Below, piece after piece: positions 7,299-63,666 of a stretch of DNA of 64,000 bases. A model generated the notes under the pieces. The model saw only the letters and a program-made list of their open reading frames with translations. It had not been told where the DNA came from and did not search any database. This DNA is from Chroococcidiopsis sp. CCMEE 29 (GTDB taxonomy: Bacteria > Cyanobacteriota > Cyanobacteriia > Cyanobacteriales > Chroococcidiopsidaceae): positions 4,419,001 through 4,483,000 of the forward strand of contig NZ_CP083761.1 of NCBI RefSeq assembly GCF_023558375.1, in the 5' to 3' direction. Each line of letters opens with the position of its first letter. Position 1 is the first letter of the stretch. The position numbers were made by a program, and so were the translations under genes.

Positions 7299-7667
7299 CT
7301 AAAACTCGTCTTCATCGCCGCGACTATTGACCATGCTGGAGTTTGTATCTTGTTTGGAACCTAACAAATCCATTTTGTCTACTTGGATGATCGGTGAGGA
7401 GCGGGTTACTCCTGTGTTGCGATCGCTCCACGTATCAAACTTCAACGAACCTTTCACCCCAATTAGGCTTCCCTTACGCACAAAGTTTCCCGCCACCTCT
7501 GCCGTCTTTCCCCATAATTCCAAAGTGAACCAGTCTGGTTCATCACTATTACGGGTTTTTCGTCTGACTGCCAGTGTCAATCGGCACTTTACACTACCAG
7601 ACTCAAAATATTTCATATCTGGGTCGCCGCCCACACGACCTACCAAGGTCACAACATTGAGACTCAT
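7299..7667 (-). CDS. ssb: Single-stranded DNA-binding protein
   Basis: A 122-residue OB-fold protein that coats single-stranded DNA in replication and repair. MSLNVVTLVGRVGGDPDMKYFESG and VRKGSLIGVKGSL are the typical SSB start and the central L45 region. The C-terminus ends in the acidic tip GDEDEF, which in this family docks partner enzymes, so the gene looks complete in spite of its short form, which is usual in cyanobacteria. It converges with the SIMPL gene over the heptad repeat and diverges from mreB. Confidence 0.92.
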   Translation of the reverse strand: MSLNVVTLVGRVGGDPDMKYFESGSVKCRLTLAVRRKTRNSDEPDWFTLELWGKTAEVAGNFVRKGSLIGVKGSLKFDTWSDRNTGVTRSSPIIQVDKMDLLGSKQDTNSSMVNSRGDEDEF

Positions 7668-8087
7668 GTGCGTTAATCTTCAGTACAAGTGTACTCTATC
7701 GTGACTTATAATCATAGCGAATTGCGAATCCAGTCGCTTAAACTGACAAAAAATCTTCTAGATTTTATTTAAACGCAAGTGTAGGGCTACTCATTTAGAG
7801 ACGCATGAGACTCTGTGTGATACTACGGTATATTTACTTAATGATTTTCCAGATAAGAATATAGGCTGCGAACTTCTCCGTAAAATTACGATTGGACAAA
7901 CAGCAGCAGTAAAGATAATTATCTTTAGCTTAAAGATTATATTTTAAGCAAGGCAAAGCACTGAAACTGAGTCAAATAAGTTTCATCTGCTCAACTAAAC
8001 TCTAGACGGAAGACGTAATAGAATCCAGCACGGTTTTTATTGCAGTTTACACAAACGTTATTACACTTTGTGAGGGGAGCGAGGCGC
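7668..8087. other. Divergent spacer, ssb / mreB
   Basis: AT-rich, no gene seen. It must hold the promoters of both ssb and the mreB operon. No unambiguous -35/-10 pair is chosen. Confidence 0.4.
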
Positions 8088-53875: not shown

Positions 53876-54571
53876 ATGAAAGGTAAGCAGGTTTTACTTA
53901 CAGGTGGGACTGGTGGACTGGGACTAGGTGTAACACCAGCAGTTCTAGCTCAAGGTGCAGAAGTTACAATTCCTTATCGCAGTGTCCAAGAAGTAGAACG
54001 TCTGAAGGGAATTTTTTCGCCCGACGATTTTGAGAGGATTCAGTTCATCCCCGCTAATCTCACGGATGAAGGGTCGGTAGAGAATATTATCAAACGGATG
54101 GAACGGGTAGACGTGTTAATCCATCTAGTGGGAGGGTTTTCAATGGGCAAAACCCATGAATATAGCTTTACAGATTGGAAACGTGACTTTGACTTAAATT
54201 TGAATACGACTTTTTTAGTCTGTAAACACAGCCTGAATAAAATGTTGCAGTCCGGCTACGGACGAATTGTAACCGTGGGGTCAAGAGGCGCAGTTCAACC
54301 AGTTGGTCAGTTAGCAGCTTATTGTGCGTCTAAGGCTGGAGTAGTGGCTTTGACGCAAGCGATCGCCGACGAAACTAAAGGCACCAATATTACCGCTAAT
54401 GTTGTTCTACCCAGTGTGATTGATACCCCCGCGAATCGAGCTGCAATGGGGGCTGAGGATGCTGATAAGTGGGTAAAACCTGACTCACTAGCACAGGTAA
54501 TCTGTTTTTTGGCATCTGAATCAGCTAAAGACGTGCGTGGTGCGGCAGTTCCAGTATATGGAAGCGTTTAG
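53876..54571 (+). CDS. Short-chain dehydrogenase/reductase
   Basis: 231 residues. The cofactor motif is VLLTGGTGGLGLGV (TGxxxGxG). The active site Ser lies in IVTVGSRGA and YxxxK in AAYCASKAG. VVLPSVIDTPANRAAM and GAAVPVYGSV complete the classical SDR pattern. The Arg at the beta2 turn (YRSVQEVER) suggests NADPH. Substrate unknown. Its stop overlaps the stop of the opposite-strand ligase gene by four bases. Confidence 0.88.
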   Translation: MKGKQVLLTGGTGGLGLGVTPAVLAQGAEVTIPYRSVQEVERLKGIFSPDDFERIQFIPANLTDEGSVENIIKRMERVDVLIHLVGGFSMGKTHEYSFTDWKRDFDLNLNTTFLVCKHSLNKMLQSGYGRIVTVGSRGAVQPVGQLAAYCASKAGVVALTQAIADETKGTNITANVVLPSVIDTPANRAAMGAEDADKWVKPDSLAQVICFLASESAKDVRGAAVPVYGSV

Positions 54572-56079
54572 TTTTTGCGCGTGTAACGGTGCTTCACTCC
54601 AATCGGAAAATACTCTGGATCTCCGGTTGGTGCTAAGGCAACCTGCGGCATCTGGTACTCAGCTGGGACATAGTTAGAAAATTCACTATTCAGCCGCAGC
54701 AGATGAGAATGGATAGAGCTAGCGATCGCTTCCTGCTTCTCCTCACTCCCCTCCACTCCTGGCGCTAACTCCACAACCACAGATAGGAATCGATTCTTGT
54801 CTGCATCTTCCTTAACTTGTAATACAAACTTACCTGTTACCCATTCCTTAATCACTGGCTGCTCTAATCCCACTGTCACATTTTCTGGGTAGATGTTCGC
54901 ACCAAAGTAGGAGACGGTGAAGTTGGAGCGTCCAAAAACGTAAATAAAAGGTAGAGGATGAATACCTCTTCCACCCTCACGCTGCAAAGTCTCTACTGGG
55001 TTGAATTGCCATTCTGCCAGGAATTTGAGCATTGCATCATAAGCAAGTACTCCCCCACTATCAGCAATGTGATAGCGCACTAGAGGGATGCCATTATCTC
55101 CAGAAAATAGCAGCGATCGATCGTCGTCCACTTCAAAGTAGCGGCTGAGGGGATCGTACTGTACCAGCGTCGGTAGGCGTGATTCTCCAAACAGGCTACG
55201 AGCTGCATCTGGATGGTTGGCTAAGAAACGGCGAATGCAAATGCTTAGTGGTGTTTCATTACCCAATACTGCCGCATCAGCGGTGCCATAGAGTGCGGCT
55301 GAGTCATAGCAGGGATGTTTCGAGCCGACTCGTTCTCCAACTAGACTGCGCCACTCTTCGCTAAAAACTTCTCCAGCCAGAACTAGCTTAATCTGATACC
55401 GCTGCCACTCCACATCACGCGCAATCCCGCTATCAATTACATCCTTGAGAAATGGCGGGTAGCCTAGCAGTACAACTTGTTCAAATGCAGTGCCAAGTTC
55501 CTGCACGACTCGAAAGATCTCTTCTTTGTTATTGCCTGGAGTAACAACAGTGATGGGATAACCCTTACTAGCAAGATAGCGGCAGCAATTCGTGGTGTAC
55601 ATTCCGCCTACCCAGGTACCCAAAGTGAAACAAATCACAGCTAGCGTGGGTTTGGTGTCGGCATTAAAGCTGTTGTGGAATATCTGCTCAAAGCGTGTGG
55701 CTATCTGAAATTCGTCTGCCACAAACCGAGGCCAAAACGTAGGCTTGCCTGTGGAACCCGACGAAACAGCAATCATATCGCACGTTTCCAGTTGCCCGTT
55801 GCGGCACAAGTCTGCCAGTAAATGATGCTGTAGGTAGTTTTCTTTGTTAATCAGCGGCAGGTTTTGAAAATCCTCAAACGTCTGGATAGATGCAGGATTT
55901 ATGCCGTGTTCTGTCAAAAAAGCTTTGTAAGCGGGTACAGTAGCAGTAACATTGTGAAATAAAGCTAGGGCAGCTGATTCCGGAGAATTATACTGATGCC
56001 GTTCTAGCTGTGTCTCAAGGGGTGTGGTTAGGAACTCTTGAAACGCCTTCAAAGCCCGGTTTTGTCGTTCTTCCTGCAT
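54568..56079 (-). CDS. Adenylate-forming enzyme, phenylacetate-CoA-ligase-like (PaaK/CoF synthetase type)
   Basis: 503 residues. FQNLPLINKENYLQHH and AVSSGSTGKPTFWPR (AMP loop) are typical of the PaaK superfamily; AALYGTADAAVLGNETP and GDNGIPLVRYHIADSG follow at the adenylate site, then FTVSYFGANIYPENVTVGLEQP. The C-terminal subdomain is short. It probably activates an unidentified carboxylic acid as its adenylate. The gene is alone on its strand; no carrier protein or ketosynthase gene is near. Confidence 0.8.
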   Translation of the reverse strand: MQEERQNRALKAFQEFLTTPLETQLERHQYNSPESAALALFHNVTATVPAYKAFLTEHGINPASIQTFEDFQNLPLINKENYLQHHLLADLCRNGQLETCDMIAVSSGSTGKPTFWPRFVADEFQIATRFEQIFHNSFNADTKPTLAVICFTLGTWVGGMYTTNCCRYLASKGYPITVVTPGNNKEEIFRVVQELGTAFEQVVLLGYPPFLKDVIDSGIARDVEWQRYQIKLVLAGEVFSEEWRSLVGERVGSKHPCYDSAALYGTADAAVLGNETPLSICIRRFLANHPDAARSLFGESRLPTLVQYDPLSRYFEVDDDRSLLFSGDNGIPLVRYHIADSGGVLAYDAMLKFLAEWQFNPVETLQREGGRGIHPLPFIYVFGRSNFTVSYFGANIYPENVTVGLEQPVIKEWVTGKFVLQVKEDADKNRFLSVVVELAPGVEGSEEKQEAIASSIHSHLLRLNSEFSNYVPAEYQMPQVALAPTGDPEYFPIGVKHRYTRKN

Positions 56080-56579: not shown

Positions 56580-57497
56580 ATGCAGTTAGCTAATCGCGTT
56601 GCGACTCCACCACAGACACTGACCTTATCTGCCCAAAACCCCGCTCAACCTAGACTAACAGTATTTCACTCCACAGGCTGTTCAAATACTCAATCTTCAC
56701 GTCCTCATGCTCATTCGTTTTTTGAACTTTTCTTCATTGAAGAGGGTGAAGGCTGGTACTCGAGTGGTGATCGCCAAGTTTGGGCTAAACCTGGCGATCT
56801 TTTTCTCATCGCTCCTGGCAAGGTTCACGATCCCAGCGATCTCGATCACGCAACTAAGTGGATTGTTGGTTTTGGAGCTGATGCCCTTAACCCAGCGTAT
56901 ACTGATGCTGACATGTTTTTAATGCTGCCTAATCAACTGCTGGGTTCATTTCTGCACATGGAGCATGTTGAAGCTAAACACTTCTGGGTTTCCCCTGTGG
57001 AACGTCCGCGATGGTTAGCGCTGTTCCAGCAGCTAAAAAATGAACTTTGCGACCAGGAACTTGGTTTTAGAGAGGCAGCACGCGCGCTTTTAATGCTATT
57101 GCTGATTGAAACTGCTAGACTAACAACTCCCAAGTCACCTGAGTTACCTGAGTTAAAACAATCCTCTGCTCAATCTCGCCCAATTGTGAAAAAAGTTTTG
57201 TACTTTATAAATGCTAATTACTGTAATTCCATTGGGCTGCAAGAAGTAGCTGAGGCAGTCAACCTTTCTCCTGCCTACCTGACCAACCTAATCCGGCGGG
57301 AAACTGGACGGACTGTACTGAGTTGGATCGTCGAATACCGCATGGCAGAGGCACGCCGCTTGCTGCTTGAAACCGATCAATCTGTGAATCAAATTTCTGA
57401 AGCAGTAGGCTATTTTGATTCAGGTTATTTCATTCGTCTGTTTCGTCGTCTCAACAGCACAACTCCACAAGCATGGAGACTTTTGTATCGCAGCTAA
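56580..57497 (+). CDS. AraC-family transcription regulator with cupin sensor
   Basis: 305 residues from ATG 56580 (a TTG seven codons earlier is open too). The N-terminal cupin (HAHSFFELFFIEEGEGWYSSGDRQVWAKPGDLFLIAPGKVHDPSD) is a small-molecule sensor. The C-terminal double HTH has NSIGLQEVAEAVNLSPAYLTNLIRRETGRTVLSWIVEYRMAEARRLLLETDQSVNQISEAVGYFDSGYFIRLFRRLNSTTPQAWR, complete. Placed before a five-gene cluster in the same direction, with duplicated promoter-like sites in between, it is the likely activator of that cluster. Confidence 0.9.
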   Translation: MQLANRVATPPQTLTLSAQNPAQPRLTVFHSTGCSNTQSSRPHAHSFFELFFIEEGEGWYSSGDRQVWAKPGDLFLIAPGKVHDPSDLDHATKWIVGFGADALNPAYTDADMFLMLPNQLLGSFLHMEHVEAKHFWVSPVERPRWLALFQQLKNELCDQELGFREAARALLMLLLIETARLTTPKSPELPELKQSSAQSRPIVKKVLYFINANYCNSIGLQEVAEAVNLSPAYLTNLIRRETGRTVLSWIVEYRMAEARRLLLETDQSVNQISEAVGYFDSGYFIRLFRRLNSTTPQAWRLLYRS

Positions 57498-57517
57498 CAC
57501 GAACCCAAAACAGAGCG

Positions 57518-57586
57518 AAAAAATGACCAATTGCACAACAAAATTGTCCCTTGCGTCTAACCGCATAACTTTATAGACTGATTATC
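57518..57586 (+). promoter_or_regulatory. Promoter-like repeat R1
   Basis: AAAAAATGACCAATTGCACA, then AAATTGTCCCTTG, CTAA and, nine bases on, TTTATAGACT as a -10 candidate. 37 of the first 43 bases match R2. It begins 20 bases after the AraC gene stop. Proposed binding by the AraC-type protein is inference. Confidence 0.5.
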
Positions 57587-57830
57587 CTAGAGAAGATTGT
57601 TCAAAAGACAATCGCGATCGCAGTCACTTCAAAAGTATTGAGTTATCACACTATGCTTCAAGCATTTGATATAGAATTGAGAAATTATAATCAATTGCAA
57701 GAAGTCAATAGATAACTATTCCATACCAGATTAAAACCTTTTTAGGTTGAGCAACTTTCTCAAGCATCAAAAAATTGCTATCCACTCAAATGTGAGTAGT
57801 TAGACATCAATCAGCGCAAATACTTTAAGT

Positions 57831-57905
57831 ATATCCCTCTCTTAATTCCTTCCTCTCCAAGCTTGGCTGGGAAATGAGCTAAGAAATCAAAGAGGGATAT
57901 TTTTG
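57831..57905 (+). terminator. Terminator-type hairpin downstream of R1
   Basis: ATATCCCTCT (57831-57840) pairs perfectly with AGAGGGATAT (57891-57900); the arms extend with mismatches and TTTTT follows at 57900-57904. CCAAGCTTGG lies in the loop. With R1 as promoter this would end a transcript of about 310 bases with no good ORF except a 20-codon frame at 57652. Confidence 0.55.
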
Positions 57906-58010
57906 AATTCCTTAATATCGAGCTGCTGATTAAAAACTAGTGTTTATCTGGCTTCTTTTGCCAAGTCAAATAAATATACTGTTAAAGCATATAAAACATT
58001 CCAAGCATAA

Positions 58011-58078
58011 AAAAAATGACCACTTGCACAGAAAAAATGTCCCTTGTTTCTAAATTTTTTACTCTTTATACTAATCAT
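58011..58078 (+). promoter_or_regulatory. Promoter-like repeat R2, upstream of the AGE-like gene
   Basis: AAAAAATGACCACTTGCACA, then AAAATGTCCCTTG, CTAA and, eleven bases on, TTTATACTAAT. It precedes the AGE-like gene by 170 bases and has the better -10 of the two copies. Confidence 0.55.
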
Positions 58079-58247: not shown

Positions 58248-60257
58248 GTGAAGCAATTTACTCAAAGTACAACCCTAATGGGTTACGTGACTGAGATAAA
58301 AGAACAAGACTCTGCCTTTAGTATCAAATGCCGTAGTAGTGAAGAATTTTGGGTATATGTTGGCAGAGAAACTCAATTTCAATTCATGCAAAATCTAGAC
58401 GGTATCAACCGCGATCGCTATCCTACTCCTGAAGGTTTTTCTTGGAATTCCTCACAATTAGTTAGAAAGTATATCCAGCGCGATCGCCTGGTAGTGGTGC
58501 AAGGAGTTTACCTAGAGGACGGCGCTAATCGCCGCTTCGACGCACGTATTGTCAGCTTACTACAATCATTCAACGGTGAATTTCTGTTTGAAGAAACACA
58601 CTGGTGGATTACACAAATTGCTCGTTTAGCTGATACTTGGCTAGGCTTTTTATTTTCTAATAAAATGACCTACGAAATTGATGACTTTAAGCTTTACCGA
58701 ACCAATTTAAACATCATTGGGTTACCAATGGATGACAGCATTCAAGAAAGTTCAACTTTAGCTAGATTGATCTATGGTCTTTCTTCAGCTTACTTGTTGA
58801 CTGGATGCGAAAGTTATCTATCAGCCGCTCGTGCGGGAGTTCAATATCAACGTGAGACTTTCCGCAGCTTAACTAGCGATGGCAAGCATTGTTTTTGGGC
58901 ATCTGGCAAGCGCAAGACACAGTATAGCTATCAACTATACATGACTTCCCAAAACGACGACGATAGAGGCACAATCCCACTCTACGAGCAAATTTATGCA
59001 CTAGCTGGATTAGCTCAATACTATCGAATCACCCTAGATTGGGAAGTACTTGATGATATTCAGCGAACAGTTCGTACTTTTAATGATTTCTTTCTTGATC
59101 TCGAATCGAAGTATGGCAAGGATGCTTACGGAGATTATTTTTCTCACCTTGATTATGCAACGATGAGTTGGGATAGTCCTGCTTTGGGTGACAACCAAGC
59201 CAAGAAAAACTGGAATTCCATTGGCGATCACATCCCAGCGTATCTTGTTAACTTAATGCTTGCTCTGGAACCGCTACCAATCACTGAGGGTAACTTCGAA
59301 GAATTGCAACAGTTCCTCAATATCTGCAAAAAAATCCTCCACACCACCAGCTCCATCATCGTTGAGCAGTTTCCCGATCCAGATCCCAACGTTCCATTTG
59401 TGAACGAGCGGTTTCTCCGCAACTGGCAACCAGATCGAGCTTGGCGATGGCAGCAAAATCGTGCGGTTGTAGGACACAACTTAAAGATTGCATGGAACCT
59501 AACTCGCGTTGCTAATTACTACTACTTTATGGCTGACAAAACTGCGGCTGAGAACCCAGAAGAAGCAGAGCAATTTAAACAGTTGGCAGATAAGTTGATG
59601 AGGCTAGCAGATAAGTTAGGCGCTAGCATGGCGGAGATTGGAGTAGACCTATTCCGAGGTGGAATTTTTGATACTCTTGAGCGCAATCCTCATAATGGGA
59701 TGCCTTTGGAGTTTCCTTGGAGCAACACTAAAGACTTTTGGCAACAGGAACAAGCTCTTCTCGCTTACTTGATTCTGCATGGCTGTAGTAATGAGGATGA
59801 GACCCAAAAGCAAGAGTATTTAAGACTTGCCCAAGAAACAGCTGCCTTCTGGAATTTATTCTTTCTCGATCAGGAGAACAAAGGAGTCTTCTTCCGAGTT
59901 ACTGATGGTGGCATGCCAGTCATTCAAGGCGACTATGACAACAAAGGCGGTCATGCGATCTCTGGGTACCACGCATTCGAGCTAAATTATTTAGCTCACA
60001 TCTATATCAGTTCTTACGTGACGAAAAAACCTTTCTGCCTTTACTTCAAACCAAGTAAAACGTGTCGGCAGCGATCGCTTAATGTATTACCTGATTTCGT
60101 TAAACCCAATACCTTCCAAATCGGCCGCATCAACATTGATGGTAGCGAGCGCGATGCAATCGACCCCGATAACTTTCGGATTACGCTGAGCGATCGCGAA
60201 TTTACCCTCGGTTCAGAGGCAGAAATTGTTGTGGAACTGAAGCCTTTAAGTGCATAG
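58248..60257 (+). CDS. AGE-epimerase-like (alpha/alpha)6-barrel protein with N-terminal extension
   Basis: 669 residues. The N-terminal 110 residues are a beta-rich domain (MGYVTEIKEQDSAFSIKCRSSEEFWVYVG...VQGVYLEDGANRRFDARIVSLL), like an OB/nucleotide-binding fold. From about 115 on the protein is helical with paired helices (LARLIYGLSSAYLLTG, YEQIYALAGLAQYYRIT, RAWRWQQNRAVVGHNLKIAWNLTRVANYY with His410, FWQQEQALLAYLIL). The order and the GH...W motif are those of N-acylglucosamine/cellobiose 2-epimerases. It is much longer than the 400-aa epimerases, so a different sugar or a non-sugar substrate is possible. Start GTG with GGA eight bases upstream; first gene of the cluster. Confidence 0.65.
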   Translation: MKQFTQSTTLMGYVTEIKEQDSAFSIKCRSSEEFWVYVGRETQFQFMQNLDGINRDRYPTPEGFSWNSSQLVRKYIQRDRLVVVQGVYLEDGANRRFDARIVSLLQSFNGEFLFEETHWWITQIARLADTWLGFLFSNKMTYEIDDFKLYRTNLNIIGLPMDDSIQESSTLARLIYGLSSAYLLTGCESYLSAARAGVQYQRETFRSLTSDGKHCFWASGKRKTQYSYQLYMTSQNDDDRGTIPLYEQIYALAGLAQYYRITLDWEVLDDIQRTVRTFNDFFLDLESKYGKDAYGDYFSHLDYATMSWDSPALGDNQAKKNWNSIGDHIPAYLVNLMLALEPLPITEGNFEELQQFLNICKKILHTTSSIIVEQFPDPDPNVPFVNERFLRNWQPDRAWRWQQNRAVVGHNLKIAWNLTRVANYYYFMADKTAAENPEEAEQFKQLADKLMRLADKLGASMAEIGVDLFRGGIFDTLERNPHNGMPLEFPWSNTKDFWQQEQALLAYLILHGCSNEDETQKQEYLRLAQETAAFWNLFFLDQENKGVFFRVTDGGMPVIQGDYDNKGGHAISGYHAFELNYLAHIYISSYVTKKPFCLYFKPSKTCRQRSLNVLPDFVKPNTFQIGRINIDGSERDAIDPDNFRITLSDREFTLGSEAEIVVELKPLSA

Positions 60258-60265
60258 GAGAGCAG

Positions 60266-60967
60266 ATGATTACTGAGACACTTGAAGGCAAAAAAATTGC
60301 TGTACTCGTTGAAACTGAATATATTCCTGAAGAAATTGCGGCTTATCAAACACGCTTTCCCGAACTAGGAGCAACCGTGCATTTAATGTCTCGGCTGTGG
60401 GGTAATCAAAGCGTTCGCTTCGCAAGCGATGTCGATAGTGTAGAAGCGGCGGATAGGATCAATAGACAGGAAACGAGCCTCCCAACATTGGAAGTCAACA
60501 TTGACTTTCAGAACACAGACATTAATGAATATGCGGCTGTGATCATGGCTGCTAACTACACCAGCGTGCGTCTACGCTACTTTCAGCCACCAGAAGGACA
60601 GCCAATCAGCCCAGAACAGACTCGCACTGCCCCAGCAGTACAGTTCTTTGCCAAGGCAATGGCGAATCCCAAAATCATTAAAGGCTTGCTGTGTCATGGA
60701 CTGTGGCTGCTGACACCAATGCCGGAACTACTCAAAGGGCGACGGGTAATCTGTCATGAAGTTGTCCTTGCAGACATCGTGAATGCAGGTGCAGTTTACG
60801 TGCCATCGCCTACCAACATTGTTGTGGATGGCGACTTGGTAACGGGGCGATCGGGGCATGATGTGAATGCATTTATCGATGCGATCGCCCAACAAATCGT
60901 TCTGCAAGAAAAAGGCTTATCTCTGCTGGCTTACGAACAAATGGTATTGCAAGAAGCAGCAAGTTAA
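60266..60967 (+). CDS. DJ-1/PfpI-family protein 1
   Basis: 233 residues. The flavodoxin-like fold starts GKKIAVLVETEYIPEEIAAYQTRFPELGATVHL; the nucleophile is Cys143 in GLLCHGLWLLTP, with the usual elbow of this superfamily, and CHEVVLADIVNAGAVYV follows. An acidic residue near the N-terminus (ETEYIPEE) stands where DJ-1 proteins have their Glu partner. Members act as glyoxalase III, deglycases, hydratases or isonitrile hydratases. The start lies eight bases after the AGE-like stop, with AGGAG. It differs strongly from protein 2. Confidence 0.82.
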   Translation: MITETLEGKKIAVLVETEYIPEEIAAYQTRFPELGATVHLMSRLWGNQSVRFASDVDSVEAADRINRQETSLPTLEVNIDFQNTDINEYAAVIMAANYTSVRLRYFQPPEGQPISPEQTRTAPAVQFFAKAMANPKIIKGLLCHGLWLLTPMPELLKGRRVICHEVVLADIVNAGAVYVPSPTNIVVDGDLVTGRSGHDVNAFIDAIAQQIVLQEKGLSLLAYEQMVLQEAAS

Positions 60968-61019: not shown

Positions 61020-61874
61020 ATGACTAGAAAGATTTTGATCGTGCTATCTGAATGGGGTTACTGGGGAGAAGAATTAGTCGGTCCTCTTGAAACCTTCGAT
61101 GCGGCAGGATACCAGGTTGACTTTGCCACTCCAACAGGTAAACGACCGGTAGCCCTCACCCCCAGCATGGATGCTACATTTGTCGATCCACCTTTAGGTC
61201 GTCCTGTAGTCTCCTCAGAGATGGCAGAGAAGGTACGAGCCTTAGACGACCCCAACAACACCCGCTTAAATAACCCAAAAAGTCTGAGAGAGTGGTTGCC
61301 CGAAAGACCTTATTGGAGTTCACCAAAATTCCTACGGGAAATGGAAGCATACTACAGAAGGCTTGAAGAGATACGTGAGAGAGATTTAAGCCAATACGAT
61401 TCTATGTTGATCGTCGGTGGTAGCGGTCCAATGGTCGATTTGGTTAACAACCAAAGAGTTCACGCTTTGATCCTTAGCTTCTACCAAATGGATAAGCCTA
61501 TTGCTGCCGAATGTTATGGTGTACCTTGTCTTGCCTTTGCCCGTGACATCAATGATCGCAAAAGTATTATCTGGGGCAAGCACGTTACAGGTCACTGCTT
61601 GGAATATGACTACAAAGATGGTACAGGATTTATGGGAACGAACGTCGATCCTGGCTTAGGCAACATTAACTTTGGTCCCCCATTCTATCCGCTAGAGTAC
61701 ATCCTCCGCGATGCCACAGGTCCCCAAGGGCAGTTTCATGGCAATGTCGGGCATGAAGTTTCAGTGATTGTTGATTACCCATTCATTACAGGACGCTCTA
61801 CCCCGGATTCTTATGCCACTGGTCAAAGGGTAGTGGAAGTCTTAGAACACGGACTAAGACGGTACGGCTGGTAG
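61020..61874 (+). CDS. DJ-1/PfpI-family protein 2 (Hsp31-like)
   Basis: 284 residues from ATG 61020; a TTG five codons earlier is also open. KILIVLSEWGYWGEELVGPLETFDAAGYQVDFATPTGKRPVAL is the class I amidotransferase-like start of Hsp31-type proteins; MLIVGGSGPMVDLVNN, then the nucleophile Cys165 in PIAAECYGVPCLAFA. A long insert at about residues 70-125 gives it the extra cap of the Hsp31 branch. Third gene of the cluster; 52 bases follow protein 1. Confidence 0.82.
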   Translation: MTRKILIVLSEWGYWGEELVGPLETFDAAGYQVDFATPTGKRPVALTPSMDATFVDPPLGRPVVSSEMAEKVRALDDPNNTRLNNPKSLREWLPERPYWSSPKFLREMEAYYRRLEEIRERDLSQYDSMLIVGGSGPMVDLVNNQRVHALILSFYQMDKPIAAECYGVPCLAFARDINDRKSIIWGKHVTGHCLEYDYKDGTGFMGTNVDPGLGNINFGPPFYPLEYILRDATGPQGQFHGNVGHEVSVIVDYPFITGRSTPDSYATGQRVVEVLEHGLRRYGW

Positions 61875-61956: not shown

Positions 61957-63666
61957 ATGGAAAAAAGAAATGGTCGGTTTGCAATTGTAGAACAATTGCT
62001 TGCAGATGGTATTCACTACATGTTCGGTAACCCTGGCACGGTTGAAGAGGGGTTTCTCGATTCGCTCAGCGATTATTACCCAGAGTTTGAATACATCCTT
62101 GCCTTACAAGAGACGATCGCGGTAGCGGCAGCTGATGGCTACGCCCGCGTTACCAAAAAGCCAACCATTGTGCAACTTCACAGTGGAGTTGGTCTAGGCA
62201 ATGGCATCGGTATGTTATACCAAGCAATGCGCGGTCATGCCCCATTAGTCGTATTAGCGGGGGAAGCTGGCACTCAATACGATGCGATGGATGCACAAAT
62301 GGCGGCAGACCTTGTAAGTATGGCAAAGCCTGTTACCAAATGGGCAACTAGAGTTCTTCATCCTGCTTCGCTGTTGCGCGTGTTGCGGCGGGCAATCAAA
62401 ATTGCTGCTACGCCTCCGATGGGTCCGGTCTTTGTTTCTCTACCGATGGATATTCTCGATGAACCGAATGAGGAAGAAGTATTTCCTACCTCGATCCCAG
62501 TGACGCGGGTTGCCCCGGAAGCAGATGCGATCGCTCAAGCAGCAGCAATGCTTGCCACAGCATCAAATCCACTCATGATTGTAGGCGACGGCGTAGCCTA
62601 TTCTGATGCCCAAGCTGAATTAACCCGCGTAGCCGAACTGATTGGCGCTCAAGTTTGGGGTGCAGACTCATCAGAACCAAATATGAGCGCTACCCATCCA
62701 CTATTTGGCGGCTTGCTGGGTCACATGTTTGGAGCAAGTAGTAGCCGCATCACATCCCAAGCTGATGTCGTTCTAATTTGCGGTACTTATGTTTTCCCTG
62801 AAGTGTTTCCCGCTTTATCAGGTGCGTTTGCTCCAGGGACAAAAACGATCCACATTGATTTAAATGGCTATGAAATAGCAAAGAACTTTCCGGTAGATTT
62901 AGGGCTGCTCAGCGATCCGAAAACGACCCTAGCCAAACTGAGCGCTCAATTAGAAAAGACATTGACCCCAGAGCAAAAACGATTAATTTATCAACGAACT
63001 ACTCAGATAGTTGAAGCTAAAAAGCAGCAAATGGTCGAGCAGTTTGAAGCTGACAAAGCCGTACATGACCTCGTACCGTTGCATCTATCGCAGTTTGCCG
63101 AGGAATTAGCTAGACATTTACCGCCAAACGCGATCGTCTTCGATGAGGCAATTACTCATTCTGAAGAACTGTGTCGCTATATTCCACCCACCACACTAGG
63201 GCATTATTTTCAAACGCGCGGCGGTTCTCTAGGTGTGGGCATTCCTGGCGCAATTGGAATTAAACTTGCCCATCCAGATAAAACCGCGATCGGCTTTACT
63301 GGTGATGGTGGTGCTATGTACACCATCCAGGCGTTATGGACTGCTGCCCATCACAATATCGATGCGAAATTTGTCATCTGCAACAATCGCAGCTATCGCA
63401 TTCTAAAGCTGAACATCTTGCAGTATTGGCAAGAGCAGCAGATCCCAGCACACGAATTTCCTGCTTCTTTCGACTTGTGCAAACCAGATATCCGGTTTGA
63501 CGAGCTAGCACGGGCAATGGGAGTGCAAGCAGTGCGCGTGGAAACATCAGAGCAGATCAAACCAGCGATCGCCCAAGCTTTGTTCCACAACGGACCTTTC
63601 CTGATTGACCTAGTAATTAGCAGCGAAGTACCTGGTACTTTGGTTAGCCCTAAGTGCGGACAGTGA
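61957..63666 (+). CDS. Thiamine-diphosphate-dependent enzyme (benzoylformate decarboxylase / acetolactate synthase-like)
   Basis: 569 residues with Pyr, central and PP domains. The catalytic Glu is Glu52 in LALQETIAVAAADGYAR; the ThDP/Mg motif starts at GFTGDGGAMYTIQALW (about residue 450) and ends VICNNRSYRIL. GNPGTVEEGFLDSL at the N-terminus is closest to benzoylformate decarboxylases. The family decarboxylates 2-oxo acids or joins two carbonyl units. AAAGGAAA is a good ribosome site. Not ScyA of the scytonemin cluster, which has other neighbours. Fourth gene of the cluster. Confidence 0.88.
   Translation: MEKRNGRFAIVEQLLADGIHYMFGNPGTVEEGFLDSLSDYYPEFEYILALQETIAVAAADGYARVTKKPTIVQLHSGVGLGNGIGMLYQAMRGHAPLVVLAGEAGTQYDAMDAQMAADLVSMAKPVTKWATRVLHPASLLRVLRRAIKIAATPPMGPVFVSLPMDILDEPNEEEVFPTSIPVTRVAPEADAIAQAAAMLATASNPLMIVGDGVAYSDAQAELTRVAELIGAQVWGADSSEPNMSATHPLFGGLLGHMFGASSSRITSQADVVLICGTYVFPEVFPALSGAFAPGTKTIHIDLNGYEIAKNFPVDLGLLSDPKTTLAKLSAQLEKTLTPEQKRLIYQRTTQIVEAKKQQMVEQFEADKAVHDLVPLHLSQFAEELARHLPPNAIVFDEAITHSEELCRYIPPTTLGHYFQTRGGSLGVGIPGAIGIKLAHPDKTAIGFTGDGGAMYTIQALWTAAHHNIDAKFVICNNRSYRILKLNILQYWQEQQIPAHEFPASFDLCKPDIRFDELARAMGVQAVRVETSEQIKPAIAQALFHNGPFLIDLVISSEVPGTLVSPKCGQ

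What the first reader, a model, noticed from the sequence alone, without database searches (positions are those of the whole stretch)
57518..58078. Duplicated 69-base promoter-like element, one copy heading a possible small RNA
Two copies 493 bases apart match in 37 of 43 bases, each followed by a TTTATA -10 candidate at nearly the same distance. R2 stands before the five-gene cluster. R1 is followed 260 bases later by a 10-bp perfect stem with a T-run. The pattern suggests an AraC-type activator driving both the operon and a short RNA (about 57590-57905), perhaps a feedback regulator.
Basis: partly seen in the sequence, partly recalled or inferred. Interest (0 to 1): 0.66.

Follow-up and report, generated by a model that had tools for sequence, protein, structure and literature searches.

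The report
AraC-type promoter pair, one copy gene-less
Two copies of a conserved switch-like promoter sit beside an AraC-family regulator gene in a cyanobacterium: one clearly serves the neighbouring metabolic operon, while the other has no protein gene behind it here although its counterparts in related genomes do, so it looks like a promoter whose gene was lost and whose present product, if any, would be a non-coding RNA.

Summary
The repeat is real (51 of 68 bases, 37 of 43 in its core; 0 of 200 shuffles reach either). It is a conserved operator-promoter: two direct half-sites (AAAAAATGACCAATTG / AAAAAATGTCCCTTG) 21 bp apart, the second ending in a TTG that serves as -35, then 17 bp, then TANACT as -10. 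R2 is the operon's own promoter: an equivalent stands before ORF1 in 9 of 9 orthologous operons found. Regulator, element and operon occur together in 6 of 19 genomes of the family; the other 13 lack all three. Related genomes also carry the element before unlinked genes, as a regulon would. R1 lies 20 nt after the araC stop, exactly as an element in another genome does; there and in two other genomes an ORF follows. Here 425 gene-less bases follow. The hairpin cited for a small RNA is weak evidence: 4 of 5 relatives without R1 also have a strongly folded stretch there, most simply the araC terminator. The promoter half of the reading is well supported by sequence; the feedback small RNA is possible but unsupported. 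R1 is most likely an AraC-dependent promoter orphaned by gene loss. No binding or transcription data exist here.

The parts
56580..57497 (+). AraC-family regulator gene (AraC_binding + HTH_18), 305 aa; presumed activator
   Evidence: Pfam AraC_binding 51 bits, HTH_18 78.6 bits; orthologs beside the same operon in 7 other loci
57517..57585 (+). R1: araC-proximal element (tandem half-sites, -35, 17 bp, -10), its A-run beginning 20 nt after the araC stop
   Evidence: Held-out PWM 51.7 bits, next non-element place in the window -7.2; one of only two strong matches in the genome
57518..57532 (+). R1 distal half-site AAAAAATGACCAATT
57539..57553 (+). R1 proximal half-site, ending in the TTG of the -35
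   Evidence: Offset-21 self-match over 12 elements; alignment A2
57574..57579 (+). R1 -10 candidate TAGACT, 17 bp after TTGCGT
57586..58010 (+). Gene-less interval after R1; no ORF over 25 aa on the + strand
   Evidence: no homolog in the own genome or in the relatives' intergenic stretches compared
57831..57904 (+). Hairpin with 10-bp outer stem and short T-run; likely araC terminator, would also end an R1 transcript
58010..58078 (+). R2: operon element (tandem half-sites, -35 TTGTTT, 17 bp, -10 TATACT)
   Evidence: Held-out PWM 63.6 bits; equivalent before ORF1 in relatives
58248..60257 (+). ORF1 of operon, GlcNAc_2-epim-like, 669 aa
   Evidence: Pfam 24.7 bits, cut-off 23.4
60266..60967 (+). 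DJ-1/PfpI family protein
61020..61874 (+). ThiJ_like / DJ-1 family protein
61957..63666 (+). ThDP-dependent enzyme (TPP_enzyme N, M, C)

Best explanation
The 69-base element is the operator-promoter of the adjacent AraC-family regulator. The protein binds two direct half-sites 21 bp (two helix turns) apart, the near one overlapping the -35, and activates a sigma-70-type promoter with a 17-bp spacer and TANACT -10. R2 is the conserved promoter of the metabolic operon. R1 is an older araC-proximal promoter of the same regulon: in related genomes a protein gene follows an element in this position; here that gene is gone and R1 stands orphaned. R1 still has all its boxes and probably still fires, giving a gene-less RNA of about 320 nt ending at the hairpin near 57904, or reading on into the operon as a minor long-leader transcript. 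Shown: sequence architecture, conservation, co-occurrence, positional counterparts. Inferred: binding by this AraC, activation rather than repression, activity of R1, loss of a downstream gene.
For: In 12 aligned elements 18 of 69 columns are invariant. All 12 keep the 17-bp spacing and 11 of 12 have TTG at the -35 (caveat: 4 of the 12 were found with a pattern that fixed the distance, the other 8 by synteny). Half-site period: self-identity 0.60 at offset 21 and 0.57 at 20, at most 0.42 at other offsets 8-33. With both window copies left out they score 51.7 and 63.6 bits, next place -7.2. Own genome: two matches at 57-60 bits, third 12.8 bits. Element before ORF1 in 9 of 9 operons. In the family araC ortholog, element and ORF1 ortholog (70% or more) are all present in the same 6 of 19 genomes. 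Elements before unlinked genes in G016 and before an FMN oxidoreductase in G001. R1 against R2: half-sites 32/37, -10 5/6, spacer 10/20, flanks 15/60 and 12/60, as if selection kept the boxes. araC-proximal position: R1 and G016:C205 both begin their A-run 20 nt after the araC stop, spacers 13/20 identical (202 of 100000 shuffles); G495 and G596 also have an element after araC. It is followed by an 84-aa ORF in G016, a 316-aa protein plus a patatin-like gene in G495, a 122-aa ORF in G596. Own genome has no relative of the 316-aa protein.
Against: R1 is absent in 6 of 8 loci where araC stands beside the operon, so independent gain of R1 is also possible; in G495 the two elements share flanks (47/60 upstream), which shows a lineage-specific copying of that pair. 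No gene remnant was found after R1, and the genes after the araC-proximal element differ between genomes, so which gene was lost is unknown. R1's spacer fits the relatives poorly (-12.9 bits). The standard sigma-70 scan found neither R1 nor R2. Binding and transcription are untested.
Confidence: 0.6

Rival explanations
1. R1 drives a dedicated regulatory small RNA (about 57586-57904) that feeds back on the operon or the regulator.
For: R1 is a complete promoter element; interval 57586-57912 folds better than 100 of 100 shuffles, z -3.0; hairpin with T-run at its end; no ORF over 25 aa.
Against: In the five relatives tested that have no R1, the araC-to-element stretch gives z of -3.1, -5.3, -7.7, -4.7 and -0.5, so the structure need not belong to an R1 RNA; 10-bp stems occur in 15 of 200 shuffles; no conservation of the interval; no Rfam match above gathering score.
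Confidence: 0.15
2. R1 is a second, tandem promoter of the operon giving a long-leader mRNA through R2.
For: Same strand, complete boxes, no gene in between.
Against: Hairpin at 57831-57904 lies in the way; 6 of 8 araC-operon loci do without it.
Confidence: 0.12
3. R1 is a remote operator: the regulator bound at R1 and R2 loops the DNA, as AraC does between araO2 and araI1 (recalled).
For: Spacing 493 bp is about 47.0 turns at 10.5 bp per turn, so both face the same side (arithmetic).
Against: R1 keeps its -10 (5 of 6 bases as in R2; 9.8 of 10.5 bits), which an operator does not need; 6 of 8 araC-operon loci have only one element.
Confidence: 0.08
4. R1 is an inert relic or chance resemblance.
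For: No gene follows; spacer diverged.
Against: Half-sites and -10 are kept while the flanks are at chance; 57.1 bits in the genome search, third-best place 12.8.
Confidence: 0.05

Closest known systems
Escherichia coli araBAD control region with AraC at araI1-araI2 (recalled)
   Same: Direct-repeat half-sites 21 bp apart, the near one overlapping the -35; regulator with an AraC_binding domain and AraC HTH beside its operon.
   Different: Half-site sequence, operon content and position of the extra element (after araC, with its own -10) differ; no araO2-type site is shown; the regulator is far below the NCBIfam AraC equivalog cut-off (91.7 against 208 bits).
AraC/XylS-family class II activators such as RhaS and MelR (recalled)
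   Same: Operator overlaps the -35 of a weak sigma-70 promoter; small local regulon.
   Different: No binding or activation data here; no cyanobacterial regulator of this clade was found described in the searches (listings only).

Membership tests
AraC/XylS regulator family | AraC-type double HTH domain at the C terminus | tested here: met
   HTH_18 78.6 bits (cut-off 33.6), HTH_AraC 51.9 (26.6), AraC_binding 51 (21.1)
AraC/XylS regulator family | Binds DNA at the element | not testable with these tools
   Only indirect: co-occurrence in 6 of 19 family genomes with 13 lacking both
Tandem direct-repeat AraC-type operator with class II promoter | Two half-sites in direct repeat about two helix turns apart | tested here: met
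   Offset-21 maximum over 12 elements
Tandem direct-repeat AraC-type operator with class II promoter | Near half-site overlaps -35, sigma-70 spacing to -10 | tested here: met
   TTG in 11 of 12, 17-bp spacer and T at the last -10 base in 12 of 12 (4 of the 12 were found with a fixed-distance pattern)
Small RNA gene | Own promoter | tested here: inconclusive
   Promoter element present; activity unknown
Small RNA gene | Intrinsic terminator specific to the RNA | tested here: inconclusive
   Hairpin present but 4 of 5 relatives without R1 have strongly folded stretches there as well
Small RNA gene | Conserved RNA sequence or structure | tested here: not met
   No homolog of 57586-58010 in own genome or in the relatives' stretches compared; no Rfam match above gathering score
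AraC-type looping operator pair | Remote site needed for repression by a DNA loop | not testable with these tools
   Only the helical phase (493 bp) agrees

The most novel reading that the evidence does not exclude
An AraC-family regulon in which the target gene of one promoter has been lost but the regulated promoter has been kept under selection, so that a protein-gene promoter has turned into the promoter of a non-coding RNA co-induced with the neighbouring operon: a small RNA gene born by gene loss, with relatives showing the ancestral protein-coding states.
Probability: 0.2. Interest if true: 0.6.

Novelty: new member of a known kind. Interest (0 to 1): 0.36.

Why it matters
It gives a concrete binding-site model for an AraC-family regulator clade of cyanobacteria, found in 14 of 388 sampled genomes of the order, with a small regulon that gains and loses genes around a fixed promoter element. 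R1 is a testable case of a regulated promoter outliving its gene, one conceivable route to new non-coding RNAs.

Tried and rejected
TTTATA as -10: rejected, out of register between copies; TANACT is in register and conserved. R1 as a recent tandem duplication of R2: rejected, flanks are 15/60 and 12/60 identical and the sequences after the two copies do not align beyond shuffles (32 of 200 shuffles reach the score). Insertion element or MITE between R1 and R2: rejected, no second copy in the genome. Hidden small protein after R1: none over 25 aa on the + strand, no similarity to the 84-aa ORF of G016 nor to the G495 genes at meaningful E-values. Known RNA: only Chlorobi-1 at 16.3 bits against a cut-off of 50, on the other strand inside araC. 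First pattern TGNCCNNTTGCACA with one mismatch was uninformative: 99 hits against 56 for the reversed control. Exact core in 388 class genomes at 2 mismatches: only the own genome; relatives needed a profile. The 3-mismatch pattern gave 17 matches in 8 genomes against 3 for the control, so single 3-mismatch hits were judged by their context and by the profile; three G016 hits of this kind are in the profile itself. Alignment A1 had two rows shifted by a few bases by my error and was replaced by A2. Paper searches (listings and starts of abstracts only, no paper opened) gave nothing on this regulator or element; two of them returned no paper.

Full report
Observation. The two copies exist as described: 75% over 68 bases, 493 apart, 37 of 43 in the core and 51 of 68 overall, reached by 0 of 200 dinucleotide shuffles. 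The 10-bp stem with T-run is present at 57831-57904. The gene before R1 is an AraC-family regulator. The operon begins at 58248 with a GlcNAc-epimerase-like protein, two DJ-1/ThiJ proteins and a ThDP enzyme, and continues past the window with SnoaL-like, GMC oxidoreductase and glyoxalase-family genes.

Source. The window lies in a 6.39-Mb genome. The nearest named araC relatives are Pleurocapsa sp. CCALA 161 (69%) and a Hyellaceae MAG (68%).

What the element is. Seven further loci hold araC beside the same operon: L061, L062, L075, L076, L077, L078 and L168; in G016 the operon is on another contig. In all nine operons, the window's included, an element stands before ORF1; in the seven loci measured it starts 113 to 308 nt before the start codon (R2: 237). 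Aligning 12 elements shows the same anatomy: AAAAAATGACCAATTG, then AAAAAATGTCCCTTG 21 bases on (self-match 0.60 at offset 21), the final TTG as -35, 17 bases, TANACT (two of the 12 depart from it by one base, TATATT and TAGGCT). Eight of the twelve came from synteny; four came from a pattern with a fixed distance, so for those four the spacing is not independent. Elements in G495, G411 and G389, none of them used to build the profile, keep the 17-bp spacing too (positions).

Specificity. With both window copies left out, R1 and R2 score 51.7 and 63.6 bits; the next unrelated place in 64 kb scores -7.2. In the whole genome there are two matches at 57-60 bits and the third is at 12.8 bits (here R1 and R2 are part of the model). 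In the order 14 of 388 sampled genomes have a match at E up to 1e-4, in a class sample 4 of 388. These samples overlap. The large searches used stricter filters that lose weak matches.

Link to the regulator. In the family, a full-length araC ortholog (bits above 350) occurs in 6 of 19 genomes, the element in 6 of 19 and an ORF1 ortholog at 70% identity or more in 6 of 19: the same six. The chance of that for two of them is 3.7e-5 if genomes were independent, which they are not. ORF1 relatives at about 40% occur in four genomes with no element. G016, with the operon unlinked from its araC copies, has six matches, among them one before the operon, one after an araC copy and a divergent pair. 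G001 has one before an FMN oxidoreductase. This is what a regulon of this AraC would look like. Binding itself is inferred.

What R1 is. R1 begins its A-run 20 nt after the araC stop. In G016:C205 an element begins at exactly the same distance, with a spacer 13 of 20 identical (202 of 100000 shuffles of that spacer) and the same TAGACTGATTA end. G495 has an element about 105 nt after araC and G596 one about 52 nt after a 45%-identical araC. In these three genomes an ORF follows: 84 aa in G016 (no Pfam family), a 316-aa protein (no Pfam family) and a patatin-like protein in G495, a 122-aa ORF in G596. In the window nothing over 25 aa follows on the + strand, and the genome has no relative of the 316-aa protein (0 matches). 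The simplest account is an araC-proximal promoter whose gene was lost. R1 is absent in the other six araC-operon loci, so independent gain cannot be excluded; G495 shows that such elements can be copied with their flanks (47 of 60 upstream).

Is R1 alive? R1 and R2 agree in 32 of 37 half-site bases and 5 of 6 of the -10, but only 10 of 20 in the spacer and 15/60 and 12/60 in the flanks. Boxes kept while all else drifted suggests selection, unless the gene was lost recently.

Small RNA? The interval 57586-57912 folds better than 100 of 100 shuffles (z -3.0) and the hairpin better than 198 of 200. But in five relatives with no R1 the araC-to-element stretch gives z of -3.1, -5.3, -7.7, -4.7 and -0.5 (60 shuffles each; L062, where genes lie in between, was not tested), so a folded stretch here is usual and most simply the araC terminator. 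No homologs, no conserved sequence, no Rfam family. An RNA from R1 to the hairpin may well be made; that it regulates anything is unsupported.

Verdict. It is a new member of a known kind (AraC-type class II operator-promoter) with an interesting orphaned copy.

Noticed in passing
L168 (G495) around 4855 and 7591 of the reverse complement: The two elements of G495 share much of their flanks (47 of 60 upstream; long similar leaders by eye), a recent copying or conversion of a whole promoter region within one locus.
   Followed up: partly
L079/L174 (G016:C204): One contig of G016 carries four element matches, including a divergent pair between a 344-aa gene and a gene set that reads, by eye and unconfirmed, like DyP-type peroxidase and catalase-like proteins.
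   Followed up: partly
L172 (G596:C168) 7600-7968 -: A 122-aa ORF with a double-glycine-like leader follows an element after a 45%-identical araC; it may be a peptide precursor (by eye).
   Followed up: no
L062 10945-12948: ORF1 of the operon falls into three pieces in different frames in this MAG; assembly error or pseudogene not decided.
   Followed up: no
L190, L192, L193 (G144): Three weaker element matches (29-38 bits) in a genome of another order, with no araC relative within the short loci fetched.
   Followed up: partly
window 54568-56079 -: 503-aa protein without a Pfam family at E 0.001, distantly like phenylacetate-CoA ligase (NCBIfam 33.9 bits, cut-off 646).
   Followed up: no
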